In this document: positions 10,523 through 55,764 of the stretch, piece after piece
How the letters are laid out: every line of letters starts with the position of its first letter
Numbering within the stretch: the stretch's first letter is position 1
Source: Elusimicrobia bacterium GWB2_63_16
Lineage (GTDB): Bacteria > Elusimicrobiota > Elusimicrobia > Elusimicrobiales > UBA9959
Assembly: GCA_001799715.1 (NCBI GenBank)
Contig: MGTZ01000007.1
Location: forward strand, 1 to 59,962
Reading direction: 5' to 3'
DNA: 59,962 bases
The notes under the pieces: generated by a model
The model's input: the letters and a program-made list of their open reading frames with translations, nothing else
The model's database searches: none
Told to the model about the DNA's origin: nothing
Program-made: the position numbers and the translations under genes

Positions 10523-10647
10523 CGACAAGGGGACAGGGTTAGCAAAAGCCCCTCGGAGGCCGAGGCTTGCGTAAGCGCCGAGGCCGAGAGCGGCAGGCGC
10601 GGCCACGGTGTGGCCGACGCCGTTTTTGCGTTCCTGTCCCCTTGTCG
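10523..10647 (+). repeat. Palindromic intergenic element A
   Basis: This 125-bp element lies between the aldolase and flavoprotein genes. Its outer arms are a 15-bp perfect inverted repeat (10523-10537 with 10633-10647). Inside are the sub-terminal motifs GGTTAGCAAAAGCC and CGTTTTTGCGTTCCTG, then GAGGCTTGCGTA (10562-10573) and a GGCCACGGTGTGGCC hairpin (10601-10615). The termini from CAGG inward match element B. The sequence outside CAGG differs from B but is perfectly self-complementary: CGACAAGGGGA against TCCCCTTGTCG, which would join as a 22-bp palindrome. No coding potential was seen. Confidence 0.8.
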
Positions 10648-10651
10648 ACGC

Positions 10652-11629
10652 CTACACCCTGCCGGCGCTGCCGAGCACGGTGGCGTTCTTGTCCATGTAC
10701 ATCTTTATCAGCTCTTCGCGGGCCGGGCCCAGGTACTTGCGCGGGTCGAACTCGGTGGGCTTCTCGGCGAAGACCTTGCGGATCACCGCGGTCATCACCA
10801 GGCGGCCGTCGGAATCGATATTGATCTTGCAGACGGCGCTCTTGGCGGCGCGGCGCAGCTGCTCGGCGGAGACGCCTACGGCGTTCTCCATCTTGCCGCC
10901 GTACTTGTTAATCATGTCTATATATTCGTTGAGCACCGAAGAGGCGCCGTGCAGCACGATCGGGAAGCCGGGGATGCGCTTCTCGCATTCCTCGAGGATG
11001 TCGAAGCGCAGGGGCGGGGCGCTCTCTCCGGGCTTCACCTTGAACTTGAAGGCGCCGTGGCTGGTGCCGATGGAGATGGCCAGCGAGTCCACGCCGGTCT
11101 TCTTGACGAAATCCTCGACCTGCGCGGGGTCGGTGTAGTTGGAATGCTCGTGGGAGACCTCGTCCTCGATGCCGGCCAGCACGCCCAGTTCGCCCTCGAC
11201 GGTGACGTCGTATTTGTGCGCGTATTCCACGACCTCTTTAGTGATCTCCACGTTCTTCTCGTAGGGGTGGTGGGAGGCGTCTATCATGACGGAGGAGAAG
11301 CCGTTGTCGATGCAGCTCTTGCACAACTCCACGGTGTCGCCGTGGTCGAGGTGCAGGGCCACCGGCACGGGGCCTTCCTTGAACTCCTTGATCATCTCCA
11401 TCGCGCCGCGGCCCATCCAGCGCAGCAGCGTGGCGTTGGCGTAATCGCGCGCGCCCTTCGAGAGCTGCAGGATCACCGGCGAGCGGCTGCGGCAGCAGGC
11501 GGTCAGGATGGCCTGCAACTGCTCCATGTTGTTGAAATTGTAGGCGGGAACGGCGTAGCCGTCCTTCATGGCGTTCTTGAACATCTCGCGGGTATTTACG
11601 AAACCGAGCTCTTTGTATGATACGGGCAT
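10652..11629 (-). CDS. fba: Class II fructose-bisphosphate aldolase
   Basis: The 325-residue zinc-dependent aldolase cleaves fructose 1,6-bisphosphate to DHAP and glyceraldehyde 3-phosphate in glycolysis and gluconeogenesis. Family motifs visible are VPAYNFNN near residue 27, the metal-site VALHLDHGDT near 90, the YEKNVEIT and VEGELGVLAG motifs, ISIGTSHGAFK, and VLHGASSV near 225. A GGAGG ribosome binding site precedes the ATG, and a strong promoter lies 34-61 nt further upstream. A slightly divergent class II subgroup is possible, but the enzymatic assignment is solid. Confidence 0.94.
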   Translation of the reverse strand: MPVSYKELGFVNTREMFKNAMKDGYAVPAYNFNNMEQLQAILTACCRSRSPVILQLSKGARDYANATLLRWMGRGAMEMIKEFKEGPVPVALHLDHGDTVELCKSCIDNGFSSVMIDASHHPYEKNVEITKEVVEYAHKYDVTVEGELGVLAGIEDEVSHEHSNYTDPAQVEDFVKKTGVDSLAISIGTSHGAFKFKVKPGESAPPLRFDILEECEKRIPGFPIVLHGASSVLNEYIDMINKYGGKMENAVGVSAEQLRRAAKSAVCKINIDSDGRLVMTAVIRKVFAEKPTEFDPRKYLGPAREELIKMYMDKNATVLGSAGRV

Positions 11630-11662
11630 ATTGTCCTCCGGCTGAAATTGCGCTGCAAAACC

Positions 11663-11690
11663 ATTATATGAATTAAAACGGCGCCGTCAA
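11663..11690 (-). promoter_or_regulatory. Sigma-70-type promoter for fba
   Basis: On the minus strand TTGACG (11685-11690) and TATAAT (11663-11668) are spaced by 16 nt, upstream of the aldolase start at 11629. Confidence 0.75.
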
Positions 11691-11801
11691 AACTTACTTC
11701 CCCCCAATGAAATTTGCTAAAATACATTATTCCGCCTTTCCTGCACAATGCGATGCGCGGGGTCAGGGGGTCGGGGAACTAACGGGGACAACGGAGGGAA
11801 A

Positions 11802-12251
11802 ATGCAGCAACAGGAAAAACCGTATCTTACTGGCAGGGCCTTCTTATTCAGCATACATAAGGGCGAGGACCTGCTGCAGGCGATCCAATATTTCTGCCAC
11901 CACCACCAGGTCCGCTGCGGCCTGATAAACGCCATCGGCGCCGTGGAGAAGGCGGTATTCAGCGTCTACGACCAGAAGGCCAAGAAGTACAACAAGCTGA
12001 CGATAGAGAAGGAACTCGAGATCCTGTCCCTCTCCGGCAACATCAGCCTGTTCGACGACAAGCCCATGGTGCACGCGCACGCTATGTTCTCCGACAACGA
12101 GGGCAAGGCCTTCGGCGGCCACCTCGTGGCCGGCTCGCGCGTTTTCAGCGCCGAGGTCTTCATACAGGAACTCACCGGCGACATCAAGGTGCGCAAACTG
12201 GAGAAAGCCACGCAGCTGCCGCTGTGGGCCAACCCGGTCTGCCTTAAATGA
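11802..12251 (+). CDS. PPC (DUF296)-domain protein
   Basis: The 149-residue protein matches the stand-alone bacterial and archaeal PPC/DUF296 fold. It has an early KGEDLLQAIQYFC helix, the GLINAIGAVEKAVFSVYD strand region, and the MVHAHAMFSD...GGHLVAGSRVFSAEVFI core with clustered histidines. In plants the domain accompanies AT-hooks; bacterial stand-alone members form trimers of unknown function. The start at 11802 is chosen because GGAGG sits just upstream; the frame stays open to 11748 but that part is low-complexity. Its stop overlaps the era start by 4 nt, so it heads the era operon. Confidence 0.85.
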   Translation: MQQQEKPYLTGRAFLFSIHKGEDLLQAIQYFCHHHQVRCGLINAIGAVEKAVFSVYDQKAKKYNKLTIEKELEILSLSGNISLFDDKPMVHAHAMFSDNEGKAFGGHLVAGSRVFSAEVFIQELTGDIKVRKLEKATQLPLWANPVCLK

Positions 12252-13198
12252 CGGACGGCGGACCTGAACCCACGGATGGAGGCGGCCTGATACCGCCTCC
12301 ATCTTCATTCCGGGCCGGCTTCGTGCCCATCACCGGCCTGCCCAACGCCGGCAAGTCGACGCTGATGAACGCGCTGTGCGGCACGCGTCTCTCCATCATC
12401 TCGGAAAAACCGCAGACCACCCGCAACAATATCCTGGGCATCCTCAACGGCAAGGATTACCAGGCCGTTTTCGTGGACACCCCCGGCTTCCTGCGCGCGC
12501 GCAACATGTTCGAGCGCAGCATGGAAGGCGCCATCAAGCGCGCCGCCGCCGAGGAAGGGGACCTCTGTATCCTCATCGTCGAGCCGGGCCTCCCCCCGGA
12601 GGACAAGATCCCGCTGTTCGACCCGCTCAAGCAGGTGCGCTGCCCGCTTTACCTGGTCATCAACAAGCTGGACAAGGAAAAGACCGGCGACCGCGCCAAG
12701 GCCGCGGAAGACTTCTATTCCCGGCTGCTCACCATAGACAAGGTTTTTCACGTTTCCGCGCTCACCGGCGGCGGCCTGAAGGAACTGCGCGCCGGCCTCA
12801 AGGCCGCGCTGCCGGAACATCCCCCCTACTACCCCGTGGACCAGGTCACCGACCGCTGGGAGAAGTTCTACGCCGCGGAGATAATCCGGGAACAGATCTT
12901 CAAGATGTACACCCAGGAGATCCCCTACTCCTGCGCGGTGGAGATAGAGGTTTTCAGGGAAGCGCCCGGCGAGGACGACCAGATCCTGGCCGCGGTGCAC
13001 GTGGCGCGCGCCGGGCAGAAACCCATCATCATCGGCAAAGGCGGCGCCGCCATCGCCCGGCTGCGCGAGGCTTCGGCCAAGGCCATCGGTTCTTTCCTCC
13101 ACCGCCCGGTGGAGCTGCACCTCACGGTCAAGGTGACCCCCGGCTGGCAGGATAACCCCGTTTTCCTGAAAGAAATCGGTTTCTATGACAAGAAGTAG
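12248..13198 (+). CDS. era: GTPase Era (30S ribosome assembly)
   Basis: The 316-residue Era binds 16S rRNA near its 3' end and acts in 30S subunit maturation. It shows G1 GLPNAGKST at about residues 29-37, G3 DTPGF, G4 NKLD and G5 SALTGGG. A C-terminal KH domain follows with GQKPIIIGKGGAAI near residue 255. A proline-rich leader of about 20 residues (PEPTDGGGLIPPPSS) before the G domain is longer than in typical Era, and the true start could lie slightly downstream. It overlaps the PPC gene by 4 nt and the following membrane protein gene by 14 nt. Confidence 0.95.
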   Translation: MTDGGPEPTDGGGLIPPPSSFRAGFVPITGLPNAGKSTLMNALCGTRLSIISEKPQTTRNNILGILNGKDYQAVFVDTPGFLRARNMFERSMEGAIKRAAAEEGDLCILIVEPGLPPEDKIPLFDPLKQVRCPLYLVINKLDKEKTGDRAKAAEDFYSRLLTIDKVFHVSALTGGGLKELRAGLKAALPEHPPYYPVDQVTDRWEKFYAAEIIREQIFKMYTQEIPYSCAVEIEVFREAPGEDDQILAAVHVARAGQKPIIIGKGGAAIARLREASAKAIGSFLHRPVELHLTVKVTPGWQDNPVFLKEIGFYDKK

Positions 13199-13658
13199 CG
13201 GAGAGGAGCGGGTGGTCTACGCGCTGGCGGCATACCTCGGCGCCTCGCTGCTGGCCACCGTACTGCTGCTGCTGCTCTCGCTGGCGTCGATGAAACTGTT
13301 CTTCGCCGCCGCGCGCTACGCGCTGGGGCCGGAGGCGGTATACTGGCTCAAGCCCGCGCTTTACGACTCGGCGGGTTTCGCCCTCGCCTCTGCCGGCACC
13401 GCGCTGGCCCAGTACTTCCTGGTCAGCCTGCTGCGGCGCGCAGCCGACGAGAAAATGTTCCTCGCCGTCATCTGCGGCTTCACCGCGCTGTTCTGCGGCC
13501 TGCTCTTCTGGCGGACCGCGCTGTTCTCCAGCCTGGGCGCCTACGGCCTCTCCGGCCTGACCGTCACGCTGGCCGCACTCCTGGGCGGCCTGGAAGCGGT
13601 TTACCAGGCCGACACGGAGAATCCGTGGCCGCCTTCGGTCTCCTCTCTGTTCCGTTAA
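13185..13658 (+). CDS. Small polytopic membrane protein, unknown
   Basis: The 157-residue protein has about four predicted transmembrane segments (around residues 12-35, 60-80, 90-110 and 115-135). A short charged N-terminus precedes them and there is no recognisable domain. The start overlaps the last 14 nt of era, so it is translated from the same transcript. It ends 2 nt before the convergent radical SAM gene with no terminator between them. I do not recognise the family. Confidence 0.7.
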   Translation: MTRSSGEERVVYALAAYLGASLLATVLLLLLSLASMKLFFAAARYALGPEAVYWLKPALYDSAGFALASAGTALAQYFLVSLLRRAADEKMFLAVICGFTALFCGLLFWRTALFSSLGAYGLSGLTVTLAALLGGLEAVYQADTENPWPPSVSSLFR

Positions 13659-13659
13659 T

Positions 13660-14691
13660 TTATTCCCAGACGCCGGGGATCTTCTGTCCGCAGGGGCAGG
13701 CGCCCCCGGGGCCGAGCAGGTTCGCCTTTACGGCGAACCCCTCGCGCTCTATCACCCGCCTTCCGCAGGCCGGGCAGGCGGTGTGCTGCCCCTGCGCGCC
13801 CCGCACGTTGCCGCAGTAGACGTAGCGCAGGCCGGCGGCAAGACCGAGGGCCCGGCCGCGGGCGAGCGTCTCCGGCGGGGTGGGCCGGGCGCCGGCCATC
13901 TTGTAGTCCGGGTGAAAAGCCGTAAGGTGCCAGGGGATATCCGGCGACAGCCCGGCGAGGAAGCCGGCCATTTCCCCTATCTCGCCGTCGGAATCGTTGA
14001 AGCCGGGGATCAGGAGCGTCACGACCTCCAGCCAGAAGCCGGCCTCCCGGATGGCGCGTATGCCGTCGAGGACCCTGTCCAGCCTGGCCCCGCAGACCTT
14101 GGAGTAATTTTCGGCGCTGAAGCATTTTAAGTCCACTTTCCAGAGGTCCATCACCGGCCGCAGCAGCGCGACGGCCTCCGGCGTGGCGTAGCCGTTGGAG
14201 ACGAAAGCCGAGCGCAGGCCCAGCTTTTTCCCCTCGGTGAAGACGGCGGCGGCCCATTCCGCGGTTATCAGGGGCTCGTTATAGGTGGAGACCAGCAAAC
14301 GCGCCCCGGCCTCCTCTGCGGCCGCGGCCAGCGACGAGGCGGAGACCTCCTCCGGCTCGGCGCCGGCGCCGGAGGCGGAGGCCAGGTCGGAGATCTGCCA
14401 GTTCTGGCAGAAGCCGCAGCGGAAGTTGCAGCCGTACATGCCGAAGGAAAGCGTGCGCGCTCCGGGCAGAGCGTGGAAGAAGGGCTTCTTCTCTATCGGG
14501 TCGGGAGCGGCGCCGGAAACGTAGCCCCACGGGGCCCGCAGCGCGCCGCCCCGGACAAAGCGCACGCCGCAGATGCCGGCGCCCCCCTCGGGGACCGCGC
14601 AGCGGTGCGCGCAGGCCAGGCAGCGTACCCGGCCGCCGGCAAGTTTTTCGGAGAGGGCGGCCTCGCGCGATAATTGAGGATGAAAAAGCAT
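13660..14691 (-). CDS. AmrS-like radical SAM protein (AmmeMemoRadiSam type, PflA-related)
   Basis: The 343-residue protein has an N-terminal cysteine-rich segment (VRCLACAHRCAVPEGGAGICGVR) and the radical SAM cluster motif C-N-F-R-C-G-F-C (CX3CX2C). STYNEPLITAEW and GFNDSDGEI motifs and a second zinc-like Cys cluster near the end (CPACGRR, ACPCG) follow. This matches the AmmeMemoRadiSam system radical SAM protein. The start at 14691 overlaps the kinase stop by 1 nt (TGATG) with a GGGGAG site upstream; the frame stays open to 14805 but inside the upstream gene. The AMMECR1 and Memo partners are not in this window. Confidence 0.88.
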   Translation of the reverse strand: MLFHPQLSREAALSEKLAGGRVRCLACAHRCAVPEGGAGICGVRFVRGGALRAPWGYVSGAAPDPIEKKPFFHALPGARTLSFGMYGCNFRCGFCQNWQISDLASASGAGAEPEEVSASSLAAAAEEAGARLLVSTYNEPLITAEWAAAVFTEGKKLGLRSAFVSNGYATPEAVALLRPVMDLWKVDLKCFSAENYSKVCGARLDRVLDGIRAIREAGFWLEVVTLLIPGFNDSDGEIGEMAGFLAGLSPDIPWHLTAFHPDYKMAGARPTPPETLARGRALGLAAGLRYVYCGNVRGAQGQHTACPACGRRVIEREGFAVKANLLGPGGACPCGQKIPGVWE

Positions 14692-15587
14692 CAGCTCCCC
14701 TGCAGGCTGGGCTTGGGGGCTATGACTTTGAGGGCGGAGGGCAGCACCGTGAAGCGGATGCGTCCGTCGTGGGAGTAGAAATCCTCGCCGTCGAGGTGGT
14801 ACCACGCGCCCCCGCCGCAGTTGAACTCAATAACGCGGCCCTTGTAAGCGGAATAGATACCGGGGTGCCGGTCCAGCGTGCCGCGGAACAGGGCCGGCAC
14901 GGCGGCCAGCAGCCTGTACAACGGGGCTTTTTTCACGGAAACGAGGTCTAGCAGGCCGTCGTCGATGTAGGCGCCGGGGGCCATGCGCGCCCCGCCGCCG
15001 TACTGCACGCCGTTGAGCACCGCGTTGACCATGGCCAGCAGTTCCAGGCGGCGGCCGTCGAGGTTGACGGTAACCGGGGCAGGCTTATAGGAGATCAGGC
15101 GCCTGGCGGCGTGCCACACATAGGGCAGGATGCCGCGCCGTGAGCCGAGCGAATTAAAATCGTGCGCCACCTCGGCGTCCAGCCCCACGCCCCCGGAAAC
15201 CAGGAACGGGCGCCCGTTGGCCAGGCCAGCGTCCACCGGCCGGGGTTCCCACTTGAGCAGTCCCGCCAGAGCGGCGTCGAAGTCCAGCGGGATATACAGG
15301 TTGCGGGCCAGACCGTTGCCGGAGCCGCAGGGGAGAATACCCAGCGCGGCGCCCTTGCCGATGAGCGGGATGGCGGCCTCGCGGATGGTGCCGTCGCCGC
15401 CCGCCGCCACGACTCGGGAGAAGCCCGCCAGCACGGCGCGCGAAGAAAGTTCGGAGGCGTGGTCGCGGGCCTCTGTAAAAGCTATCTCGCAGCGCAGTTT
15501 GCGGCCGGAGAAAAAGCGTTCTATGCGCTCGCGTACGGAGCCGTGACGCAGGCCGGCCTTGGGATTGATGATAAAAAAATAGGACAT
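14691..15587 (-). CDS. Diacylglycerol kinase-family lipid kinase (DagK/YegS-like)
   Basis: The 298-residue protein has the DAGK catalytic domain. INPKAG lies at residues 6-11, the nucleotide-binding AAGGDGTIREAA near residue 61, and LGILPCGSGNGLARNL near 85, with a C-terminal beta-sandwich containing IDDGLLDLVSV. Such enzymes phosphorylate diacylglycerol, undecaprenol or related lipids with ATP at the membrane. It follows the upstream unknown gene with no gap and overlaps the radical SAM gene by 1 nt, so the three form one translationally coupled minus-strand operon. Confidence 0.92.
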   Translation of the reverse strand: MSYFFIINPKAGLRHGSVRERIERFFSGRKLRCEIAFTEARDHASELSSRAVLAGFSRVVAAGGDGTIREAAIPLIGKGAALGILPCGSGNGLARNLYIPLDFDAALAGLLKWEPRPVDAGLANGRPFLVSGGVGLDAEVAHDFNSLGSRRGILPYVWHAARRLISYKPAPVTVNLDGRRLELLAMVNAVLNGVQYGGGARMAPGAYIDDGLLDLVSVKKAPLYRLLAAVPALFRGTLDRHPGIYSAYKGRVIEFNCGGGAWYHLDGEDFYSHDGRIRFTVLPSALKVIAPKPSLQGS

Positions 15588-16241
15588 CTACTCTGTGGCG
15601 CTGAGGCCCGTGGCCCAGTCCGCCTTGCCGCCGGTGGGCTCTATGGCCAGCAGCGTATTGCCGGCCGCCGACGAGCCCTTGCCGCAGCGGAAGCGCACTT
15701 TATACACATAGCCGATGCGCAGGTCCGGCTTCGGCCCGAGCACGCCGGAGTCTTCCACGTAAAGGTAGTCGATCTCCTTAGCCCGGCCCGAATAGACCAA
15801 ATTGAGCCGCCAGCCGGCTGGCACGCGCTTGGCGGTTATCATCTGCAGCTGCATCTCCAGGTCGCGGCCCTCGTAGCGTTCGGGGCGGGCGAAGAAGTCG
15901 TCCTCTTCCCCCCGCAGCGCGCGCTGCGCGGGCTGGGGAGCCTCTTCCATGACGATCTCCGCGGGGCGGGGCGCCGCGGGGGCTATGACGGGAGCCGGCG
16001 CGGGCGGCGCCGGTTCTTCCTCCTCCGGCTCCAGGTCAGGCGGCGCCTCGGGCTCCTCGGACCCCGCCCCCTCCTCGCCCTCGGCCCGCGCCGAAGGTTG
16101 CGGGGAGTAGGGGGTCTGGAAAGAGGCCGGGTGGGCCGGGGGCTTGGAGGGATAGAACTTGTCCTTAAGTATGAAGCCCAGGATGATGCCTATGAAGAAA
16201 AGGAGGAAAGTGTTCAGCGCCCTGAGGCGGAAGAAATTCAT
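15588..16241 (-). CDS. Single-pass membrane protein with Pro/Glu-rich linker, unknown
   Basis: The 217-residue protein has one N-terminal transmembrane segment (LNTFLLFFIGIILGFIL). A strongly acidic, proline-rich linker spans about residues 35-105, and a C-terminal globular part of about 110 residues (YVYKVRFRCGKG, LLAIEPTGG) follows. The layout suggests a periplasmic domain held away from the inner membrane. No family recognised. Its stop abuts the lipid kinase ATG. It is divergent from the FecR-type gene. Confidence 0.75.
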   Translation of the reverse strand: MNFFRLRALNTFLLFFIGIILGFILKDKFYPSKPPAHPASFQTPYSPQPSARAEGEEGAGSEEPEAPPDLEPEEEEPAPPAPAPVIAPAAPRPAEIVMEEAPQPAQRALRGEEDDFFARPERYEGRDLEMQLQMITAKRVPAGWRLNLVYSGRAKEIDYLYVEDSGVLGPKPDLRIGYVYKVRFRCGKGSSAAGNTLLAIEPTGGKADWATGLSATE

Positions 16242-16298
16242 GTCTTGATTTTATAATATTTGCGGTATATTGTATATTTGAGGGATACGGAGGATTTT

Positions 16299-17033
16299 AT
16301 GAAAAAAATATTATTGGCCGCGGCCCTGTTCCTTCCCGCGCTACCGCTGTTCGCCGCGCCTTCAGGCTGCCTCTATGACCTGTCCGGCCCGGTGGAAATA
16401 TTCAAGGCCGGCGCGCCCGGCTGGGCCCCCGCGCGCAAGGGCGACGCCCTGGACCAGGGTGACCGGGTGCGCACCGGCGAGAAGGCCTGGTGCGAGCTCC
16501 TGCTGCGCGACGGCAGCTACATTAAACTGGACGCCGGCTCCGAGACCGCCGCCGACGAGCTGAAGACCGCGGCCGGAGAGCGCGCTTTCTCCTTCTCCTT
16601 TCTCAAGGGGAAGGCCCTGTGGATGGCGTCCCGGCTAAAGGCCAAGACCCTCTCCAAGTTCTCGGTCCGGACGCCATCGGCGGTCTGCGCGGTGCGCGGC
16701 ACCGATTTCTCCATAGCCGTCTCCACGGCCGGCGAAACCACGGTGGGCCTGTTCGAAGGGGCGGTAGCCGTGACCGGCGCCTCGCAGGAGACCGAGATCG
16801 TCGCCGGCCAGGAGGCCTACGCGGGGCCGGGCGGGCTGACGGTGGAGGGCAGGCTCTCGAAGTTCATGCGGGCCGAGGAACGCCGCTGCGCCAAAGTCCG
16901 CGGCAGGGTAGCGGGGCTGCGCAAGCGCCTGGCCGAGCGTGAAACCTTCCTCGACGAGTATATGGATAAGCAGGCCAAAAAACTGGCCGATTTCGACGCG
17001 CGCCGCGAGGAAAGGCTCAAGGGCCGCAAATAA
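16299..17033 (+). CDS. Secreted FecR-domain protein with C-terminal coiled coil
   Basis: The 244-residue protein has a signal peptide (MKKILLAAALFLPALPLFAA) and a FecR domain: LDQGDRVRTGEKAWCELLLRDGSYIKLD, then SVRTPSAVCAVRGTDFSI and FEGAVAV. A charged helical C-terminus of about 60 residues rich in Arg/Lys/Glu follows. Unlike iron-signalling FecR there is no cytoplasmic anti-sigma part or membrane anchor and no sigma gene nearby, so a structural or sensory periplasmic role is more likely. The start at 16299 has GGAGG upstream; the longer frame from 16260 lacks one. Confidence 0.85.
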   Translation: MKKILLAAALFLPALPLFAAPSGCLYDLSGPVEIFKAGAPGWAPARKGDALDQGDRVRTGEKAWCELLLRDGSYIKLDAGSETAADELKTAAGERAFSFSFLKGKALWMASRLKAKTLSKFSVRTPSAVCAVRGTDFSIAVSTAGETTVGLFEGAVAVTGASQETEIVAGQEAYAGPGGLTVEGRLSKFMRAEERRCAKVRGRVAGLRKRLAERETFLDEYMDKQAKKLADFDARREERLKGRK

Positions 17034-17050
17034 CCCGCCAGCCAAAAGAA

Positions 17051-17077
17051 AAAGGCCGGGACAGCCCGGCCTTTCTT
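17051..17077. terminator. Bidirectional intrinsic terminator
   Basis: A 10-bp stem (17051-17060 with 17065-17074) with an ACAG loop is followed by a T-rich tract on both strands, and is strongest on the minus strand. It separates the convergent FecR and lipoprotein genes. Confidence 0.9.
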
Positions 17078-17092
17078 CATTTCCGCGGAATC

Positions 17093-24584: not shown

Positions 24585-24762
24585 CGTGCCCTCTAGAGGA
24601 TTCGGCCACAACTCTCGGGCTCACCGTCGTTCGCCCTCGGTCGCGGCCCCGGCTCCCAGCTGCGGCCTGCTGGCCTCGCTGGTCCGCCTTTCGAATCCTC
24701 ACGCGCGGCATAATTATGCCGCGCTTAGCGTGCACGCGAAAGCGTGCCCTCTAGAGGATTCG
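24585..24762. repeat. Palindromic element C abutting tRNA-Arg, bounded by 20-nt tRNA-derived direct repeat
   Basis: The 20-nt sequence at 24585-24604 is repeated exactly at 24743-24762, where it covers the last 18 nt of the tRNA gene plus 2 nt. Each copy is preceded by a small hairpin (GCACGAT/ATCGTGC at 24574-24589; GCACGC/GCGTGC at 24732-24747). Between them GAGGATTCG (24596-24604) and its inverse CGAATCCTC (24692-24700) bracket about 87 bp of GC-rich sequence. That interior includes, on the minus strand, ACGGTGAGCCCGAG, resembling the ACGGTGTGGCCGAG core of the other elements. A perfect 22-bp palindrome (24703-24724) follows. The rest of the 24507-24992 gap holds a promoter and two short hairpins (24825-24841, 24843-24867). 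Confidence 0.7.
24703..24724. repeat. Perfect 22-bp palindrome
   Basis: GCGCGGCATAA followed by its exact inverse is centred on AATT. Its size matches the 20-22 bp palindromes that would form if elements A and B were excised, so it could be an unoccupied site or the terminator hairpin of the tRNA. There is no T tract. Confidence 0.6.
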
Positions 24763-30149: not shown

Positions 30150-30318
30150 ACCATATGGGCAGGAACGCAAAACCGCCGTCACTGCGGTGTCGCTGCGCTC
30201 CACCCGCACACCGTGCTCGCGGCTGCCCGTCTCGGCCCTCGCGCTATGCAAGCTCGGGACGCAGAAAGTGTCGCTTCGCTCCACCCCGACAGGCTTTTGC
30301 TAACCCTGCCCATATGGT
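30150..30318 (-). repeat. Palindromic intergenic element B (queA-tgt gap)
   Basis: This 169-bp element carries perfect 14-bp terminal inverted repeats (30150-30163 and 30305-30318). Ninety nucleotides (30169-30258) are identical, in reverse complement, to 55655-55744 of element D. Read on the minus strand, its ends CAGGGTTAGCAAAAGCC and GGTTTTGCGTTCCTG match element A, whereas the flanks outside CAGG (ACCATATGGG/CCCATATGGT) are unrelated to A. A GGTGGAGCG-AGCGACAC motif occurs twice inside. A third copy of the arm (CTGCCCATATGGT) lies at 30399-30411, after a small palindrome at 30371-30392. No gene was seen in 30085-30452. Confidence 0.85.
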
Positions 30319-30370
30319 TCCCGCCAGTTTCTCACATGTTACATCCTGTTGCGGGAGAACGGCAGGCTGA

Positions 30371-30411
30371 CGAGGGTATGCCCTCGCCGGCCTAATGACT
30401 GCCCATATGGT
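30371..30411. repeat. Short palindrome plus third copy of element B arm
   Basis: CGAGGGTATGCCCTCG is followed by GCCGGCC (30371-30392), resembling the palindrome at 18691-18720. The arm motif CTGCCCATATGGT is repeated at 30399-30411 and followed by AGGCCGC, which also follows the right arm of element D. Confidence 0.55.
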
Positions 30412-30449
30412 AGGCCGCCAAGATTTTTAGCGCAGAAATTAAGGATTAA

Positions 30450-43655: not shown

Positions 43656-43851
43656 CGGCAGCGCCGTGAGTGCTGCGAGCGATTTTAGTGCGCAGGGCCA
43701 AGGGCCGCAGCGGACGGCCTATCATTAAGGCCGCGGCGAAGAATGTCTGAGCGAGGCACTGTGTGCCGAGCGAGTTCTTCGCCGGCGTAGGCCCGCCGGC
43801 CCTCTTCCGCCGCGCACGCTCTATGAGCGAGTAGCGCTCACGGCGCTGCCG
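43656..43851. repeat. Palindromic intergenic element G
   Basis: This 196-bp element has a perfect 15-bp outer inverted repeat (43656-43670 with 43837-43851) continuing imperfectly inward. An inner stem pairs GGCGAAGAA (43735-43743) with TTCTTCGCC (43775-43783), and the core reads GCGAGGCACTGTGTGCCGAGCG (43751-43772). That core matches the GCGAGGCCACGGTGTGGCCGAGCG centre of element E. The right arm ends 14 nt before the next ATG, which has no Shine-Dalgarno. Confidence 0.7.
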
Positions 43852-49640: not shown

Positions 49641-49714
49641 GAGGACGCCGGGCCGGGCCGCCCCCTCGGGAGCGGCTCTCTCAAACTGCTTTTGCGCGCA
49701 AGCGCGGGGATAAA

Positions 49715-51310
49715 ATGACCAGATATATATTCGTGACCGGCGGCGTAGTCAGCTCTCTCGGCAAAGGCATCACCGCGGCCTCCATCGGCCGCCTGCTCAA
49801 GTCCCACGGGCTTTCCGTCACCATCATGAAATGCGACCCGTACATCAACGTGGACGCCGGCACCATGGCGCCGTTCCAGCACGGCGAGGTCTTCGTCACC
49901 GACGACGGCGCCGAGACCGACCTGGACCTGGGCTACTACGAGCGCTTCCTGGGCATAGACACCGGCCGCGTCAATATCATGACCGCGGGGCAGATCTACC
50001 AGACCGTCATCGCCAAGGAGCGCGAGGGCGGCTACCTGGGCCAGACCGTGCAGGTCATCCCGCATATCACCGACGAGATCAAGCGCCGCTTCGTCAAGGC
50101 CGGCGAGGGCTTCGACATCGCCATCATCGAGATCGGCGGCACCGTGGGCGACATCGAGAGCCTCCCCTTCCTCGAGGCCGCCCGCCAGATGCGCCCCGAC
50201 CGCATGCGCAACGACGTGCTGTACCTGCACGTCACGCTGGTCCCCTACCTGACCGCCTCCGACGAGCTCAAGACCAAGCCCACGCAGCACTCCGTCAACA
50301 AGCTGCGCGAGATCGGCATCGACCCGGACATCATCGTCTGCCGCGCCGAGAAGCCGCTGGCGCGCGACATCAAGAACAAGATCGCCCTGTTCACCAGCGT
50401 CCCCAAGGAAGCCGTGATAGACGCGCCCGACGCGCCTTCCATCTACGACGTGCCGCTGGTGCTCAAGAAGCAGGGCCTCGACGAGCAGATCATGATGCTG
50501 CTGCGGCTGCGCAGCGGCAAGTGGGACTTCGACGAGTGGACCGAGTTCACGGCGCGCCTGAAGGCCGCGGCCGGCGCCGCCCCGGTGCGCATAGCCATAG
50601 CCGGCAAGTACACCAAGCTCAAGGACTCCTATAAATCCCTGACCGAGGCCGTGCTGCACGGCGCTATCGCCAACGGCGTGAAGGCCGAGTTCGACTACGT
50701 GGACGTGGAAGCCGAGGATTTCGGGGCGCGCCTGGCCAAGGCCGACGGCCTGATAGTGCCCGGCGGCTTCGGCGACCGCGGCATAGAGGGCAAGATCTCC
50801 GCCGTGCGATACGCCCGCGAGAACAAACTGCCGTTCCTGGGTATCTGCCTAGGCATGCAGTGCGCCACCATCGAGTTCGCGCGCAACGCCATCGGCCTCA
50901 AGCGCGCGCATTCCACGGAGTTCGACCCCAAGACCCCCCACCCGGTGGTGGACCTGATGGCCGAGCAGAAAGGCGTGAAGGACAAGGGCGGCACGATGCG
51001 CCTCGGCGCGTGGCCCTGCGACATCAGGAAGGGCTCGCTGGCCGCCAAGATCTACGGCGCCGCCGCCATCTCCGAGCGGCACCGCCACCGCTACGAGTTC
51101 AACAACAAGTACGCGGCGCAGTACGCCAAGGCCGGCATGACGGTCAGCGGCGTCAACAAAAAGGTGAATCTGCCAGAGATCGTGGAGATCAAGGACCACC
51201 CCTGGTTCGTTGGCGTGCAGTTCCACCCGGAGTTCAAGTCCCGGCCGCTGATGCCGCACCCGCTGTTCTTCAGCTTCGTCGCGGCGGCGGTAAAGAACCG
51301 GAAAAAGTAA
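49715..51310 (+). CDS. pyrG: CTP synthase
   Basis: The 531-residue enzyme aminates UTP to CTP with glutamine. The N-terminal amidoligase begins [28 protein letters not shown] with ATP-site residues and the [14 protein letters not shown] motif. The C-terminal class I glutaminase has the Cys nucleophile in [17 protein letters not shown] near residue 383 and His-Glu in FHPEFKSRP near residue 510. Its placement between kdsB and kdsA supplies CTP for CMP-Kdo formation in the same transcript. Confidence 0.98.
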
Positions 51311-51320
51311 GGAGACGCGC

Positions 51321-52169
51321 GTGGCTAAACAGAAACAGGTTAAAGTCGGCAAAGTGACCTTCTCCAACGACGGGCCGCTGGCCTATATCGTGGGACCGTG
51401 CGTCATAGAAACGGCGCGGTCCTACGAGGCCGAGGCCGTGAAGCTCAAAGCGGTCTTCTCGGTCCTCAAGACGCCGTTCGTACTAAAGGCCTCTTTCGAC
51501 AAGGCCAACCGCACCTCGCACAGCGCCTTCCGCGGGATAGGCATGCAGGCGGCCCTGGACTTCCTCAAAGAACTGAAGAACCGCCTGGGGCTGCCGCTGC
51601 TGGTGGACGTGCACGAGCCGTCGCAGGCGGCCGCGGTCGCCGCCGCGGCCGACATACTGCAGGTGCCGGCCTTCCTGTGCCGGCAGACCGACCTGCTCTA
51701 CGCCTGCGCCGACACCGGCCGGGCCGTCAACGTCAAGAAAGGCCAGTTCCTCTCCCCGTGGGAAGCCGAGAACATAGTCAAGAAGCTCGAGAACCGCGGC
51801 GCGGCGGGCATCATGCTCACCGAGCGCGGCTCCTCCTTCGGCTACGGCAATCTGGTGGTGGACATGCGCTCGCTGGAGATCATGAAGGACTTCGGCTACC
51901 CGGTGATCTTCGACTGCACGCACTCGGTGCAGCGCCCCGGCGGCCTCGGCAACGCCACCGGCGGGGACCGCCGCTTCATCCTGCCGCTGGCCAAGGCCGC
52001 GGCCTCGCAGCGCATAGCGGGCCTGTTCTTCGAGGCCCACCCGAACCCCTCAAAGGCGCTCTCCGACGGGCCGAATTCGCTGCGGCTCGCCGCCGTGAAG
52101 CCCGCGGTGGCGGCGCTCAACCGCGTGGACAGGCTGGCCACCGAGATCGCCGGAGTAGGATCCAACTAA
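51321..52169 (+). CDS. kdsA: 3-deoxy-8-phosphooctulonate synthase
   Basis: The 282-residue class I DAHP/Kdo8P synthase condenses PEP with arabinose 5-phosphate. Signatures are YIVGPCVIETARSYEAEAV, FVLKASFDKANRTS, DVHEPSQAAAVAAAADILQVPAFLCRQTDLL, KKGQFLSPWEAENI and VIFDCTHSVQRPGG. The start is GTG at 51321, with AAGGAG 7 nt upstream. The ASFDKANR motif and no obvious metal-site Cys leave metal dependence open. Confidence 0.96.
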   Translation: MAKQKQVKVGKVTFSNDGPLAYIVGPCVIETARSYEAEAVKLKAVFSVLKTPFVLKASFDKANRTSHSAFRGIGMQAALDFLKELKNRLGLPLLVDVHEPSQAAAVAAAADILQVPAFLCRQTDLLYACADTGRAVNVKKGQFLSPWEAENIVKKLENRGAAGIMLTERGSSFGYGNLVVDMRSLEIMKDFGYPVIFDCTHSVQRPGGLGNATGGDRRFILPLAKAAASQRIAGLFFEAHPNPSKALSDGPNSLRLAAVKPAVAALNRVDRLATEIAGVGSN

Positions 52170-52178
52170 GGAAAGATT

Positions 52179-52442
52179 ATGAAATGCACCAACTGCGGGC
52201 AGGAAAACCGCCCTACGATCAAATTCTGCAGAAAATGCAACACGGACCTGACGCTGCCGCCGGCCTGGTTCCCCAACTGGCGCTGGCATCTCAAGACGCT
52301 GGCCTGGATCTACCTGACGCTCGTCGTCGGGTTCTTCGCCGTCAGCTACCTGCTGCGCCGGCTGCCGCCCCCCTACGACCAGCGCCAGATACCGCCGGAG
52401 ATGACGCCGTGGCTGAACCCGAAGAAAGCCCCGGCCAAATAG
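52179..52442 (+). CDS. Zinc-ribbon protein with one transmembrane helix
   Basis: The 87-residue protein has a C-x2-C...C-x2-C zinc ribbon (CTNCGQENRPTIKFCRKC) followed by one transmembrane segment (LAWIYLTLVVGFFAVSYLL) and a short Pro-rich tail. It sits between kdsA and the arabinose-5-phosphate isomerase gene, with gaps of 9 and 1 nt. Function is unknown; the spacing shows it is part of the operon. Confidence 0.8.
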   Translation: MKCTNCGQENRPTIKFCRKCNTDLTLPPAWFPNWRWHLKTLAWIYLTLVVGFFAVSYLLRRLPPPYDQRQIPPEMTPWLNPKKAPAK

Positions 52443-52443
52443 C

Positions 52444-53424
52444 ATGAATCCCAAAGACTCGCTGATCCTCAAGACCGCCCGCGGCGTGATCAAGTCCGAA
52501 AGCGCCGCCGTCTCCGGCCTGTCGGCCGCGCTGGACGCGTCCTTCGTGCGGGCCGTACGCCTGCTAGAGCGCTGCCAGGGCAAGGCCGTGCTGCTGGGCG
52601 TGGGCAAGTCCGGCCTGATAGCCCGCAAGATAGCCGCCACGCTGGCCTCCACCGGCACGCGCAGCGTCTACCTGCACCCCGTGGAGTCCCTGCACGGCGA
52701 TCTGGGCATGATAGCCGCCGACGACGTGGCCGTGGCGCTGTCCTATTCGGGCGAGACCGAGGAGACGGCCAAACTGCTGCCCATACTAAAGAAGCAGGGC
52801 CTGCCCGTCATCTCCATCACCAACAACGCCGGCTCGCGCATGGCCCGCCATTCCGACGTGGTGCTGCGCCTGCGGGTGAAGTCCGAGGCCTGCCCGATGG
52901 ACATAGTCCCCACCTCCTCCACCACCGCTATGCTGGCCCTCGGCGACGCGCTGGCCGTGACGCTGATGACTCTCAAAGGCTTCGGCCGCAACCATTTCGC
53001 CCGCCTGCACCCCGGCGGCAATCTGGGCAAGCTGCTGAACCTCAAGGTCGGGGACCTGATGCACAAGGGCCGCGAGAACCCCGTGGTAAAAGAAGGCGCC
53101 GCCGTAGCCGACGCGCTGCGCGTGATGACCGCCACCCGGGCCGGCGCCGTTTCCGTAACCGGCAGGGACGGCCGGTTGACCGGCTATTTCACCGACGGGG
53201 ACCTGCGCCGCCGGCTGCAGGACGGCAGCCTGGACCTGGCCGCCCCGGTCAAAGGCGTGATGACGCGCTCGCCGCTGACCGTACACCCCGAGACGCCGGC
53301 CATGGAGGCGGCGCGGTTGATCAGCGAGCGCCGCATAGACAATCTGCCGGTAACGGATTCGAAGTCCGGCCGCCCCGTGGGCATCATAGACGAGCGAGAC
53401 CTGCTCAAAGAAGGCCTGGGTTGA
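52444..53424 (+). CDS. kdsD: D-arabinose-5-phosphate isomerase (KdsD/KpsF/GutQ family)
   Basis: The 326-residue protein has an SIS sugar-isomerase domain (VLLGVGKSGLIARKIAATLASTGT, LSYSGETEETAKLLP, NHFARLHPGGNLGKLL) and two CBS domains in the last 120 residues (HKGRENPVVKEGA..., VMTRSPLTVHPETPAMEAARL). It converts ribulose 5-phosphate to arabinose 5-phosphate, the KdsA substrate. It overlaps lptC by 4 nt. Confidence 0.95.
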   Translation: MNPKDSLILKTARGVIKSESAAVSGLSAALDASFVRAVRLLERCQGKAVLLGVGKSGLIARKIAATLASTGTRSVYLHPVESLHGDLGMIAADDVAVALSYSGETEETAKLLPILKKQGLPVISITNNAGSRMARHSDVVLRLRVKSEACPMDIVPTSSTTAMLALGDALAVTLMTLKGFGRNHFARLHPGGNLGKLLNLKVGDLMHKGRENPVVKEGAAVADALRVMTATRAGAVSVTGRDGRLTGYFTDGDLRRRLQDGSLDLAAPVKGVMTRSPLTVHPETPAMEAARLISERRIDNLPVTDSKSGRPVGIIDERDLLKEGLG

Positions 53425-53921
53425 GAAAACTGCCGCTCCTGCTGCTGCTCGCCCTCGCGGCCTGCGACTCCGCCGGCCGCGGCGAAGCCGCGCCCGGAGT
53501 CAGCCTGCTGGAGAACTTCCGCATGGCGGAGAGCGGCGCCGGCGCCGCCCGCTGGCGCCTGGAGGCCGACAAGGGCCGCATGGACGAGAAGAACGGCCTG
53601 ATCGCTTTCACCTCCCCCCGCATCCGCTTTTACGAAGCCGGCAAGCCCACCTCGGAGATCTCCTCCAGGGCCGGTTCGCTGAAGATGCACGACAAGTCGG
53701 CCGTGCTTACCGACGAGGTGGTGGTAAATTCGCTGAAGGACGGCATGCGGCTGGTCACCACCCGGCTTTTCTACAGCGCCGCCCGCGGCAAGATCTGGAC
53801 CGACGAGCCGCTGACCATCTACAAGGGCCGCACGGTAATAAAGGGCCGCGGCTTTACCGCCAACCCCGACCTCTCCGCCATAGAGATACAACGCCAGGAG
53901 ACGAGGATGTCCGGACAATGA
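53421..53921 (+). CDS. lptC: LPS export protein LptC (lipoprotein form)
   Basis: The 166-residue protein starts with TTG (TTGA overlap with the kdsD stop) and has a lipobox-like LALAAC near residue 14. LptC/OstA-type strands follow: RWRLEADKGRMDEKNGLIAFTSPRIRFYEAG, then AVLTDEVVVNSLKDGMRLVTTRLFY and TIYKGRTVIKGRGFTANPDLS. LptC links the LptBFG transporter to LptA. E. coli LptC has a transmembrane anchor instead of a lipid anchor, so this is a variant. Position before lptA-lptB confirms the call. Confidence 0.9.
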   Translation: MRKLPLLLLLALAACDSAGRGEAAPGVSLLENFRMAESGAGAARWRLEADKGRMDEKNGLIAFTSPRIRFYEAGKPTSEISSRAGSLKMHDKSAVLTDEVVVNSLKDGMRLVTTRLFYSAARGKIWTDEPLTIYKGRTVIKGRGFTANPDLSAIEIQRQETRMSGQ

Positions 53922-54622
53922 GTTCTTTACGCCTGATCCTTCTGCTGGCGCTGGCCGCCGGACCGGCCGCGGCCGCCGAGGATTTCCTGCGCGGCTCGGT
54001 GGTCAAGAGCGACAAGTGGACCATGGACCGCGCCAACGAGCGGGAGATCTTCGACGGCAACGTTTCCTTCCGCAATCCGCGCTACACGCTGAAGGCCGAC
54101 CGCGCCCTCTACGCGAGGCCGGGCCAGGCCTGGACGATGAACGGTTCGGTCTACATGCTGCGCACCTTCGACGACAAGTCCCGCGTGGAAGTGAATTGCG
54201 ACAACGCCTATTACCTCGAGACCCTGGAGGAGGCCACGCTGGGCCGCGGGGCGCTGCCGGTGAGGATGAAATATACCGGCCCCGACGGCAGGGTGCTCAA
54301 CGGCAGGGCCGACCGGACGCTGGCCGAGAACCAGAAGGGCCTGATGACCTTCGACGGCGCCTTCCTGCTTTCCACGGAGAACCTGGACATGTACGCGCAG
54401 CGGGGCCTCTACGACAACGCCGAGGGCACCTTCACCATGCTGGATTCCACCCCGGTGGCCGTAGGCACCCGCCAGCCGTACGATTTCGCGATAGCCGCCG
54501 AGCGAATAAAGTTCTTCAAGGATAGCCGCGATATAAAGTTCTATAATAGGGTTTCCGGCTGGGTCAAAGACGCGGAGCAGATCCCAGGCCAGCCGGAAGC
54601 CGCAGAGGCCGCCCGCCCATGA
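53918..54622 (+). CDS. lptA: LPS transport periplasmic protein LptA (OstA-like)
   Basis: The 234-residue protein has a signal peptide (MSSLRLILLLALAAGPAAAA) and repeated OstA-type beta-jellyroll strands: DGNVSFRNPRYTLKADRALYA, MNGSVYMLRTFDDKSRVEVNCDNAYYL, VLNGRADRTLAENQKGLMTFDGAFL. It bridges LPS across the periplasm between LptC and LptD. It overlaps both lptC and lptB by 4 nt. Confidence 0.9.
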   Translation: MSSLRLILLLALAAGPAAAAEDFLRGSVVKSDKWTMDRANEREIFDGNVSFRNPRYTLKADRALYARPGQAWTMNGSVYMLRTFDDKSRVEVNCDNAYYLETLEEATLGRGALPVRMKYTGPDGRVLNGRADRTLAENQKGLMTFDGAFLLSTENLDMYAQRGLYDNAEGTFTMLDSTPVAVGTRQPYDFAIAAERIKFFKDSRDIKFYNRVSGWVKDAEQIPGQPEAAEAARP

Positions 54623-55338
54623 AACTCGAATGCACCCTGCTTGAAAAGTCCTTCAGCCGCCGCAAGGTGGTCAACGGCATCTCGCTGCACATCAACTCCG
54701 GCGAGGTCTGCGGCCTGCTGGGCCCCAACGGCGCCGGCAAGACCACCACCTTCCACATGCTCGTGGGCTTCCTGGAGCCCGACGGCGGCCAGGTGTTCAT
54801 GGACGGCCGCGACGCCACGAAGGAGCCGATGTTCCAGCGCGCCCGCGGCGGCATAGGCTACCTGGCGCAGGAGCCCACCGTTTTTCGCGGCCTGACCGTG
54901 GAGCAGAACCTGGAGGCCATCCTGGAGCGCACCACCCCCGACCGCGCGGCCATGAAGGCCCGCGTGGAATCCCTGCTGGGCGAATTCGGCCTGCTGCGGC
55001 TCAAGGACCAGAAAGCCTGGACCCTCTCCGGCGGCGAGAAGCGCCGGCTCGAGGTTGCCCGCGTGATGATCAACGACCCCAAGATCATCCTGCTCGACGA
55101 GCCTTTCGTCGGCATAGACCCCATCACCGTCAGCGACCTCAAGAAGATCATCCTGCACCTCAAGGACAAGGGCATCGGCGTGCTCATCACCGACCACAAC
55201 GTGCGCGAGACCCTCTCCATCACCGACCGCTCCTACCTCATCTACAACGGCCAGATCCTCATAGACGGCGACGCCAACACGCTCCTCAACGACCCCAAAG
55301 CCCGCGAGTTCTACCTCGGCTGGGACTTCAAACTGTAA
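54619..55338 (+). CDS. lptB: LPS export ABC transporter ATPase LptB
   Basis: The 239-residue ABC ATPase has Walker A GPNGAGKTTTFHML near residue 35, Q-loop YLAQEPTVFRGLTVEQNL, the LptB-type signature LSGGEKRRLEVARVMINDP near 137, Walker B IILLDEPFVGIDPITV near 155, and ITDHNVRETLSITDR. It powers LPS extraction through LptFG, whose genes are not in this window. It is the last gene of the 47.9-55.3 kb operon. Confidence 0.97.
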   Translation: MKLECTLLEKSFSRRKVVNGISLHINSGEVCGLLGPNGAGKTTTFHMLVGFLEPDGGQVFMDGRDATKEPMFQRARGGIGYLAQEPTVFRGLTVEQNLEAILERTTPDRAAMKARVESLLGEFGLLRLKDQKAWTLSGGEKRRLEVARVMINDPKIILLDEPFVGIDPITVSDLKKIILHLKDKGIGVLITDHNVRETLSITDRSYLIYNGQILIDGDANTLLNDPKAREFYLGWDFKL

Positions 55339-55344
55339 TCCATA

Positions 55345-55384
55345 AATAAAAGACCCCGACGCGCCGCAAAAAGCGGAGTCGGGG
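55345..55384 (-). terminator. Probable terminator for minus-strand transcription
   Basis: A stem CCCCGAC (55354-55360)/GTCGGGG (55378-55384) with a partly paired interior is followed on the minus strand by TCTTTTATTTATG. It has no T tract on the plus strand, so it fits transcripts coming from the TPR gene side rather than lptB. Confidence 0.6.
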
Positions 55385-55398
55385 AAGCATAAAACCCG

Positions 55399-55528
55399 CG
55401 TGCGCCGGGGGTACGCCTTCTACGGGTACGCTCGGCCACACCGTGGCCTCGCTCTTTCGCTACGGCTCGGCGCTACGCAAGCCTCGCCTACGCGAGGCCC
55501 CTCCGAAGGCATACCCCCGGCACACACG
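55399..55528 (-). repeat. Palindromic intergenic element E
   Basis: This 130-bp element has near-perfect arms (55399-55420 with 55505-55528; one G-T type difference and a 2-nt bulge). Its interior contains GGCCACACCGTGGCC (55434-55448) and a 20-nt stretch at 55466-55485 that matches 10562-10583 of element A in reverse complement except for one extra base in A. Its arms carry GGGTACGCCTTC, also found in the small palindrome at 18691-18720. It lies in the 463-bp gap between convergent lptB and TPR genes. Confidence 0.8.
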
Positions 55529-55618
55529 AGGCGAGTTTTACACGAACCAAAATATGCCCGTGCCATCCCTCCGTTTTCTTTCATGGGATTGGCTGTTTCC
55601 GTAATGTAACTAGCGGAG

Positions 55619-55764
55619 ACCGCAGGGATGGGGGCTGAAAAAGCCTGTAGGAGGCCCGAGCTTGCATAGCGCGAGGGCCGAGACGGGCAGCCGCGAGCAC
55701 GGTGTGCGGGTGGAGCGCAGCGACACCGCAGTGACGGCGGTTTTTCGGACCCCGTCCCTGCGGT
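55619..55764 (+). repeat. Palindromic intergenic element D
   Basis: This 146-bp element has outer arms ACCGCAGGGA (55619-55628) and TCCCTGCGGT (55755-55764), with GGGG/CCCC and AAAAA/TTTTT just inside. Its 90-nt core (55655-55744) is identical in reverse complement to 30169-30258 of element B. It is followed by AGGCCGC and a GGCCGCTC/GAGCGGCC hairpin (55767-55788) close to the stop of the TPR gene. No gene is seen in 55339-55801. Confidence 0.85.

What the first reader, a model, noticed from the sequence alone, without database searches (positions are those of the whole stretch)
10523..55764. A dispersed family of long palindromic intergenic elements with conserved core but copy-specific, self-complementary arms
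Five clear members (10523-10647, 30150-30318, 43656-43851, 55399-55528, 55619-55764) and a probable sixth at the tRNA gene (24585-24762) share a hairpin core of the form G(G)CCACGGTGTGGCC, plus flanking motifs such as GAGGCTTGCGTA-GCGCCGAG. Two copies share 90 identical nt. The outermost 10-24 bp of each copy are different in sequence but complementary within the copy. A simple transposon conserves its ends and shows direct target repeats. Here the family conserves the inside and varies the ends while keeping them paired. This could reflect insertion at the centre of palindromic sites, inverted copying of the target by template switching, or selection for a long RNA hairpin. I know of no described family with exactly this organisation.
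Basis: partly seen in the sequence, partly recalled or inferred. Interest (0 to 1): 0.85.

Follow-up and report, generated by a model that had tools for sequence, protein, structure and literature searches.

The report
Hairpin elements with swapped tips
These bacteria carry dozens of DNA hairpins between their genes whose tips appear to be copied from one hairpin to another while the base of each hairpin often stays with its site, an uncommon way for repeated DNA to spread that deserves a direct test.

Summary
The window (an Elusimicrobia MAG) holds four copies of one Y-shaped palindromic family: 10523-10647, 30150-30318, 55399-55528 and 55619-55764. The element at 43656-43851 belongs to another family (G) with the same plan; the tRNA site is not a member. 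A covariance model finds 50 copies in this genome, 9 to 78 in each of 24 congeners (two at the scoring cap) and none in 16 genomes of a sister family. Arms are copy-specific and pair better within a copy than when swapped.

Key result for A-type elements: arms belong to the site, cores do not. At nine orthologous sites in the closest relative, arm identity is 0.75 against 0.52 for other pairs (0 of 5000 resamplings reach it); core identity is 0.892 against 0.890 (P=0.46). Four sites keep nearly identical arms; in three of them the core is of another kind, in two of these inverted. B cores do keep some site memory (P=0.014).

Best reading: tips are copied between resident hairpins, probably by template switching or ectopic gene conversion. 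Insertion into pre-existing palindromes and RNA-level selection alone are less likely. Mechanism is inferred.

The parts
10523..10647 (+). Copy 1, A type, complete; between an aldolase-like gene (10652-11629, -; name recalled, not searched) and an oxidoreductase-like gene (9249-10508, -; likewise)
   Evidence: Covariance model 153 bits; arms 15 bp perfect; G005 has no such element in the same gap
10523..10537 (+). Left arm of copy 1, pairs with 10633-10647
   Evidence: Read directly; AAGGGGACAGG occurs in this genome only in these two arms
10633..10647 (+). Right arm of copy 1
   Evidence: Read directly
10537..10634 (+). Core (hairpin tip) of copy 1: three-way junction with two inner hairpins; its first and last bases pair as part of the arm stem
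   Evidence: Profile match 10538-10634; fold
30150..30318 (-). Copy 2, A type with two short D modules inside; arms 30150-30163 and 30305-30318
   Evidence: Covariance model 78 bits; core identical to L020 over aligned positions, arms 39%
30361..30420 (+). Remnant of a B element whose tip looks deleted between CCCTCGC repeats, followed by an orphan copy of the arm TGCCCATATGGTAGGCCGCC
   Evidence: Read directly; compare the complete B in L100
55399..55528 (-). Copy 3 of the family, B type
   Evidence: Covariance model 46.5 bits; B profile match 55409-55516
55619..55764 (+). Copy 4 of the family, A type variant (GGGGGCTGAAAAAGCC end) with a D module; arms 55620-55634 and 55750-55763
   Evidence: Covariance model 81 bits
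43656..43851 (+). Family G element: another family with the same plan (conserved inside 43677-43831, copy-specific paired arms)
   Evidence: Three further copies at 91-97% over the inside only; other arms in L214 and in L180 of G005

Best explanation
These are intergenic palindromic elements (about 140 bp, Y-shaped when folded), found in all 25 genomes of one genus that I searched, which occupy long-lived slots between genes. The base of each hairpin (the arms) is largely a resident of its site and diverges there. The tip (the core, mostly 93 to 121 bp) of A-type copies is overwritten again and again by tips of other copies in the same genome, in either orientation. I infer that this happens by ectopic copying: a strand at one hairpin switches template to the homologous tip of another copy (gene conversion or template switching), and the tract ends where homology ends, at the arm/core border. 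The near-palindromic tip ends (GGTTAGCAAAA against GGAACGCAAAA) would allow both orientations. Shown: conserved slots, arm retention with core replacement, core inversion, core variants shared between sites of one genome. Inferred: the copying mechanism, its enzymes, and how the arms first arose.
For: Arms track the site, cores do not: nine orthologous A sites, arm 0.750 against 0.524 (0 of 5000 resamplings reach it), core 0.892 against 0.890 (P=0.46; 423 non-orthologous pairs; core identity ignores gaps). Four of the nine keep arms of 0.86 to 1.00 identity (L015/L202, L018/L207, L020/L171, L025/L209); the core is visibly of another kind in the first three and inverted in L018 and L020. In all nine the best core match lies at another site of the own genome, 0.90 to 1.00, against 0.85 to 0.94 for the ortholog. 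Within the own genome arm and core identity are uncorrelated (r=0.08 in 253 A pairs, 0.09 in 136 B pairs): L005/L006 share 100% of the core and 33% of the arms; L013/L021 share 100% of the arms and 87% of the core. The bases GAGCGGGTGGCAAGGGGG lie before an A core in L025 and a B core in L031. Core variants are shared between sites with different arms: one core in own L019, L020 and L021; a short core in four G005 sites and one own site. By my reading of the alignments, 26 of 27 own slots compared with G005 hold some palindromic element there too, often another one. At the site of copy 1, G017 has an A-like element with a related left arm (12 of 15) and a different core. In the inner stems of A, changes are two-sided in 105 cells and one-sided in none of 1035, 18 broken, as expected if stems are copied or corrected as DNA. 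Template switching is reported to homogenise inverted-repeat arms and invert the spacer (PMC8604942, abstract and introduction read) and to create and maintain stems (PMC8794818, abstract and the opening of the text read).
Against: B cores do keep memory of the site (0.952 against 0.913, P=0.014; six of seven pairs measured), so exchange is not universal. In three of the nine A sites the arms differ as much as in unrelated copies (L016, L023, L006) and two are intermediate (L014, L022), so arms or whole elements are replaced too. No donor and recipient were caught within one species; the ortholog test rests on one relative. Arm changes between orthologs are mostly single, not paired (27 single, 10 double, 145 unchanged, 18 gapped; 12 of 13 site pairs), so arm homogenisation is not evident except in L031/L164. 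In B some one-sided changes occur, for instance G.U in 5 of 37 at one inner pair and 9 of 37 at one arm pair. Assembled public genomes of uncultured bacteria: errors at repeats are possible, though cores of different kinds diverge about 12 bases inside the arm border, which assembly k-mers should separate (inference).
Confidence: 0.62

Rival explanations
1. The core is a small mobile unit in its own right (MITE-like, ends GGTTAGCAAAA/GGAACGCAAAA) that a transposase or recombinase inserts into, removes from or flips inside the tips of hairpins; arms are landing pads.
For: Rather constant core borders and terminal inverted similarity; same core in unrelated arms and different cores in the same arms; inversion in place.
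Against: No empty arm hairpin found (68 out-of-pattern arm matches in 213 loci, none folding back), but only fetched loci were scanned; no direct repeats clearly above the swapped control at the stem base (A 3.19 against 2.98 +- 0.16; B 2.83 against 2.81 +- 0.23; the core border was not tested); no partner enzyme known (only the Y1 transposase family was searched).
Confidence: 0.2
2. Ordinary vertical copies with a functional, sequence-constrained core and arms under selection for pairing only (RNA or DNA structure); core similarity says nothing about time.
For: 26 of 42 pairs have two-sided changes in A, 19 of 42 in B; A cores are about equally alike within and between two species (0.894, 0.901 and 0.890).
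Against: Identical or nearly identical arms with cores that differ by 13-15% (L013/L021, L015/L202); cores inverted in place; almost no G.T pairs in the inner stems of A (1 of 1035 cells).
Confidence: 0.12
3. Insertion of whole elements into pre-existing palindromes, so that arms are target sequence.
For: G015 and G018 have a GGGGACAGG hairpin at the site where copy 1 has AAGGGGACAGG arms.
Against: None of 29 relatives has the full arm there; arms carry recurring family features and travel with copies (four own copies share ACCATATGGG arms); no empty arm hairpin in the fetched loci.
Confidence: 0.04
4. Assembly or binning artefact of short-read metagenomes that shuffles repeat cores.
For: Named relatives are MAGs; copies are near-identical repeats.
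Against: Cores of different kinds diverge within about 12 bases of the border; the family is found in 25 of 25 genomes of the genus searched. Reads were not examined.
Confidence: 0.02

Closest known systems
REP / REPIN elements of RAYT transposases
   Same: Dispersed intergenic palindromes, doublets, hairpins, many copies per genome.
   Different: In REPINs the ends are conserved and the spacer is less so, with common compensatory changes (PMC3116915, passages read); here the inside is conserved and the ends vary. No enrichment of the GTAG or CGTC tags (PMC3733652, abstract read).
Yeast mitochondrial GC clusters
   Same: GC-rich mobile palindromes said to undergo merger and shuffling (PMC4478555, abstract and opening read).
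   Different: Organelle; the one named is 42 nt; site-retained arms with exchanged cores are not described in the part I read.
Small dispersed repeats of Nostoc (Elhai et al. 2008, recalled, not read)
   Same: Very small structured repeats nested in each other, with compensatory changes; compare the 25-27 base D module here.
   Different: 21-27 nt, no arm/core split recalled.
Quasi-palindrome template switching
   Same: Arm homogenisation and spacer inversion (PMC8604942), stem maintenance (PMC8794818).
   Different: Described within an inverted repeat in the parts I read; here tips also appear to move between dispersed repeats.
MITEs
   Same: Short, non-coding, inverted ends around the core.
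   Different: No target duplication seen at the stem base; arms outside the ends are themselves paired and copy-specific.

Membership tests
REP/REPIN (GTAG or CGTC tagged) | GTAG or CGTC tag beside the hairpin | tested here: not met
   5' flank: A GTAG 8 of 75 (shuffled 5.8), CGTC 0 of 75 (4.4); B 2 of 40 (3.1) and 1 of 40 (1.9). 3' flank: A 8 of 75 (5.1) and 4 of 75 (5.0); B 4 of 40 (3.6) and 0 of 40 (1.4)
REP/REPIN (GTAG or CGTC tagged) | Conserved terminal repeats | tested here: not met
   Arm identity among own copies averages 0.45 (A) and 0.58 (B), core 0.89 and 0.92
REP/REPIN (GTAG or CGTC tagged) | Cognate RAYT flanked by the same repeats | tested here: not met
   Four Y1_Tnp genes in this genome, each with palindromic flanks unlike A or B, GGGGACG type in three and AGGGACAGCGCCC in one (read)
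MITE | Terminal inverted repeats | tested here: inconclusive
   Core ends GGTTAGCAAAA and GGAACGCAAAA match at 8 of 11 positions
MITE | Target site duplication | tested here: inconclusive
   Direct repeats at an approximate stem base not clearly above swapped flanks (A 3.19 against 2.98 +- 0.16; B 2.83 against 2.81 +- 0.23); core border not tested
MITE | Autonomous partner with the same ends | not tested
   No search for an ORF between A ends was made
Structured RNA family (Rfam) | Match to a known family | tested here: not met
   Only tRNA reaches a gathering score in the window
Structured RNA family (Rfam) | Covariation with G.U intermediates | tested here: inconclusive
   Two-sided changes at 26 of 42 A pairs; G.T 1 of 1035 cells in A inner stems and 19 of 540 in the arms, leaving out column pair 24-120, which is G.U in 37 of 45; B has more G.U
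Integron attC site | Cassette array and integrase | not tested
   Considered only for the variable-stem resemblance (recalled)

The most novel reading that the evidence does not exclude
Hairpin tips are a class of mobile DNA that moves from tip to tip: a core with inverted ends is placed, replaced and flipped inside the apex of resident palindromes by an unknown single-strand or hairpin-recognising activity, and several families in one genus (A/B/C, G, F2) use the same route.
Probability: 0.2. Interest if true: 0.85.

Novelty: new variant of a known kind. Interest (0 to 1): 0.64.

Why it matters
If tips are exchanged while bases stay, then conserved core sequence, arm covariation and copy number cannot be read simply as transposition plus selection. 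The system would make template switching or conversion between distant hairpins measurable from genome pairs, and it warns that two-sided covariation may arise at the DNA level without an RNA function.

Tried and rejected
Empty-site test inside the window: the short hairpin at 30361-30393 looked like an empty B site, but is better explained as a deletion between CCCTCGC repeats. Rapid compensatory drift as the source of arm diversity: not supported between orthologs (27 single against 10 double changes). Copy 1 as a new insertion of this lineage: not secure, since G017 has an A-like element with a related arm at the site and G013 the right end of one. RAYT link: the four Y1 transposases sit in other palindromes. 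AAGGGGACAGG as a dispersed repeat in this genome: found only in copy 1. tRNA-site member: rejected. Papers: the searches listed no paper that I recognised as describing this family or site-retained arms with exchanged cores; I saw the listings, and parts of five papers (PMC8604942 abstract and introduction; PMC8794818 abstract and opening; PMC3116915 passages; PMC3733652 abstract; PMC4478555 abstract and opening). Elhai et al. 2008 is recalled, not read.

Limits. The 115 full copies (40 own, 75 others) come from 16 of the 25 genomes of the genus, own and G005 best covered; of 298 profile rows, 154 partial or edge rows were dropped and the remaining 144 hold repeats of the same copies. Ortholog statistics rest on one relative (G005). 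Of 21 own sites whose flanks were sent, 16 were resolved on both sides; 11 more come; the count of 26 in 27 is my reading of these alignments. The model counts used stricter filters that lose weak matches.
Full report
WHAT IS THERE. The window lies on contig C7 of a genome of 2.87 Mb whose relatives are Elusimicrobia MAGs. Four copies of one family lie in it: 10523-10647 (+), 30150-30318 (-), 55399-55528 (-) and 55619-55764 (+). They fall into subfamily A (core starting GGTTAGCAAAA and ending TTTTGCGTTCC) and subfamily B (starting GGGTATGCCTTC, ending GAAGGCGTACCC), which share an inner region with GAGGCTTGCGTA..GCGCCGAG and CACGGTGTG. The fold is a long stem closed by a junction with two inner hairpins. 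The exact 13-mer GCCACGGTGTGGC occurs 24 times in the genome and its reversed control never. A covariance model of 45 A copies gives 50 matches in the genome at E <= 1e-4, 9 to 78 in each of the other 24 genomes of the genus (G008 and G018 reach the 78 candidates that are scored, so theirs are lower bounds), 1,107 in all (sum checked), and none in 16 genomes of another family of the same order.

THE ARMS. In 115 complete copies (75 A, 40 B) the two arms of a copy pair better than arms swapped between copies. Arms are not arbitrary: position by position, B arms pair in 68 to 97% of copies for ten bases outside the core and at or near the control level beyond; many arms show G-runs next to the core and a GAC/GGC mismatch (read, not counted). 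Some arms recur: ACCATATGGGCAG around four own copies; GAGCGGGTGGCAAGGGGG before an A core in L025 and before a B core in L031.

ARMS AND CORES HAVE DIFFERENT HISTORIES. Within the genome, arm identity and core identity are uncorrelated (r = 0.08 for 253 A pairs, 0.09 for 136 B pairs). Copies with identical cores have unrelated arms (L005/L006, core 1.00, arms 0.33; average over all A pairs 0.45) and copies with identical arms have different cores (L013/L021, arms 1.00, core 0.87).

ORTHOLOGOUS SITES. The closest relative found, G005 (its gap at copy 1 equals that of HGW-Elusimicrobia-3, L069), has flanks mostly 85 to 97% identical. I compared 27 own slots: 16 of 21 sent as joined flanks and resolved on both sides, four in L113, six in L115 and L117 and copy 1. 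By my reading, in 26 of the 27 G005 also holds a palindromic element, though often a different one (A for B, family F2, another orientation, a rearranged inside between B-like ends at C36:100843); at copy 1 it has just a short terminator-like hairpin. So the slots are stable and the contents are not. In the other relatives read at copy 1 (29 in all, G005 included), G017 has an A-like element with a related left arm and another core, and G013 the right end of an A element after another module; the rest have other sequences, mostly short hairpins.

For the nine sites with complete A elements in both genomes, arms are 0.750 identical against 0.524 for 423 non-orthologous pairs (0 of 5000 resamplings), whereas cores are 0.892 against 0.890 (P = 0.46) (gaps ignored in cores). 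L015/L202 keeps the flanks and arms with one change but has another kind of core (0.85); L018/L207 and L020/L171 keep the arms (1.00 and 0.86) around another kind of core in the opposite orientation; L025/L209 keeps arms and kind of core with a changed D module. L014 and L022 are intermediate, and L016, L023 and L006 have arms no more alike than unrelated copies. The core is inverted in four of the nine (L018, L020, L022, L006). In all nine the best core match is elsewhere in the own genome (0.90 to 1.00 against 0.85 to 0.94). One core sits in own L019, L020 and L021 with three different arms, and a short core in four G005 sites and one own site with different arms; another cluster mixes three own and three G005 sites. 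At one more site own and G024 have similar arms with the core inverted.

Results that go the other way. For B, six of seven pairs could be measured and there cores do track the site (0.952 against 0.913, P = 0.014), as arms do (0.783 against 0.578). In L007/L162 and L097/L166 a whole B with its arms appears to have landed in an older inverted B, so complete elements move too. Arm changes between orthologs are mostly single (27 single, 10 double, 145 same, 18 gapped; 12 of 13 pairs, one anchor not found); only L031/L164 shows four paired changes in one arm.

DNA RATHER THAN RNA. 26 of 42 A pairs have two-sided changes. In the inner stems P2 and P3 of A, two-sided changes fill 105 cells and one-sided changes none; 18 of 1035 cells are broken and one is G.T. 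The arm stem has 19 G.T cells of 540, leaving out the first pair of the stem, which is G.U in 37 of 45. B has more one-sided changes. Cells are not independent events. With the inversions this speaks for copying or correction at the DNA level rather than for a transcribed structure alone, but does not exclude a further role, for instance in transcription termination.

MECHANISM. Best reading: tips are copied between resident hairpins, with arm/core borders set by where homology ends. Template switching within inverted repeats is reported to homogenise arms and invert spacers (PMC8604942, abstract and introduction read) and to create and maintain stems (PMC8794818, abstract and opening read). 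Extending it to exchange between dispersed copies is my inference. The main rival is a tip-inserting mobile core. Against it stand the lack of empty arm hairpins in the fetched loci and of clear direct repeats at the stem base; no partner enzyme was sought beyond the Y1 transposases.

Genome-wide count: many copies, so not refuted. Presence/absence: copy 1 is absent from G005 and from most relatives read. Arm palindrome at empty sites: not found at copy 1, apart from a similar GGGGACAGG hairpin in G015 and G018 at the same site. Chance self-complementarity: excluded by the swap control.

OTHER FAMILIES WITH THE SAME PLAN. Family G (window 43656-43851) and, from two copies only, family F2 (L203, L204) also have a conserved inside with copy-specific paired arms, so the process may be general in this genus.

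One search corrected the number of source genomes (16, not 17) and brought out the related arm of G017 at copy 1; the target-duplication row was lowered to inconclusive.

Noticed in passing
window 24585-24762: Twenty bases of the 3' end of tRNA-Arg (CGTGCCCTCTAGAGGATTCG) are repeated directly 158 bases away, with other hairpins between: it looks like a remnant of an element integrated at the tRNA.
   Followed up: partly
L109-L112 (G000 C20, C19, C60, C52): Four Y1 (RAYT-like) transposase genes each sit between palindromic flanks; in three these begin GGGGACG and then differ between copies, again paired but copy-specific.
   Followed up: partly
L115 6864-7749 against L180: The same intergenic slot holds a Y1 transposase palindrome in this genome and a family G element in G005.
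   Followed up: no
L203 and L204 (G005): Family F2: another hairpin with a similar inside and copy-specific arms (about 20 bp in L204) at slots that hold A elements in this genome.
   Followed up: no
window 30150-30318 and 55619-55764; L023, L025, L102: A 25-27 base module D (GGTGGAGCG.AGCGACAC..GCAGTG) lies inside A and B cores at several positions, replacing a few bases, like a still smaller nested repeat.
   Followed up: partly
L101, L094 (C20:24255), L181 (G005): A third core type C (GGGTTCGGAAGG .. CCCCGTGCCTGACGGGC) with the same centre.
   Followed up: no
L179 (G005 C84:15300-15700): A multi-hairpin insertion of about 134 bases after a stop codon, absent from this genome at that place.
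   Followed up: no
window 55399-55764; L094, L100, L108, L131: B and A (or C) elements often stand in pairs of opposite orientation, with a shared spacer (CAGCCTGCCGTT..) in several copies, which suggests a composite unit that also spreads.
   Followed up: no
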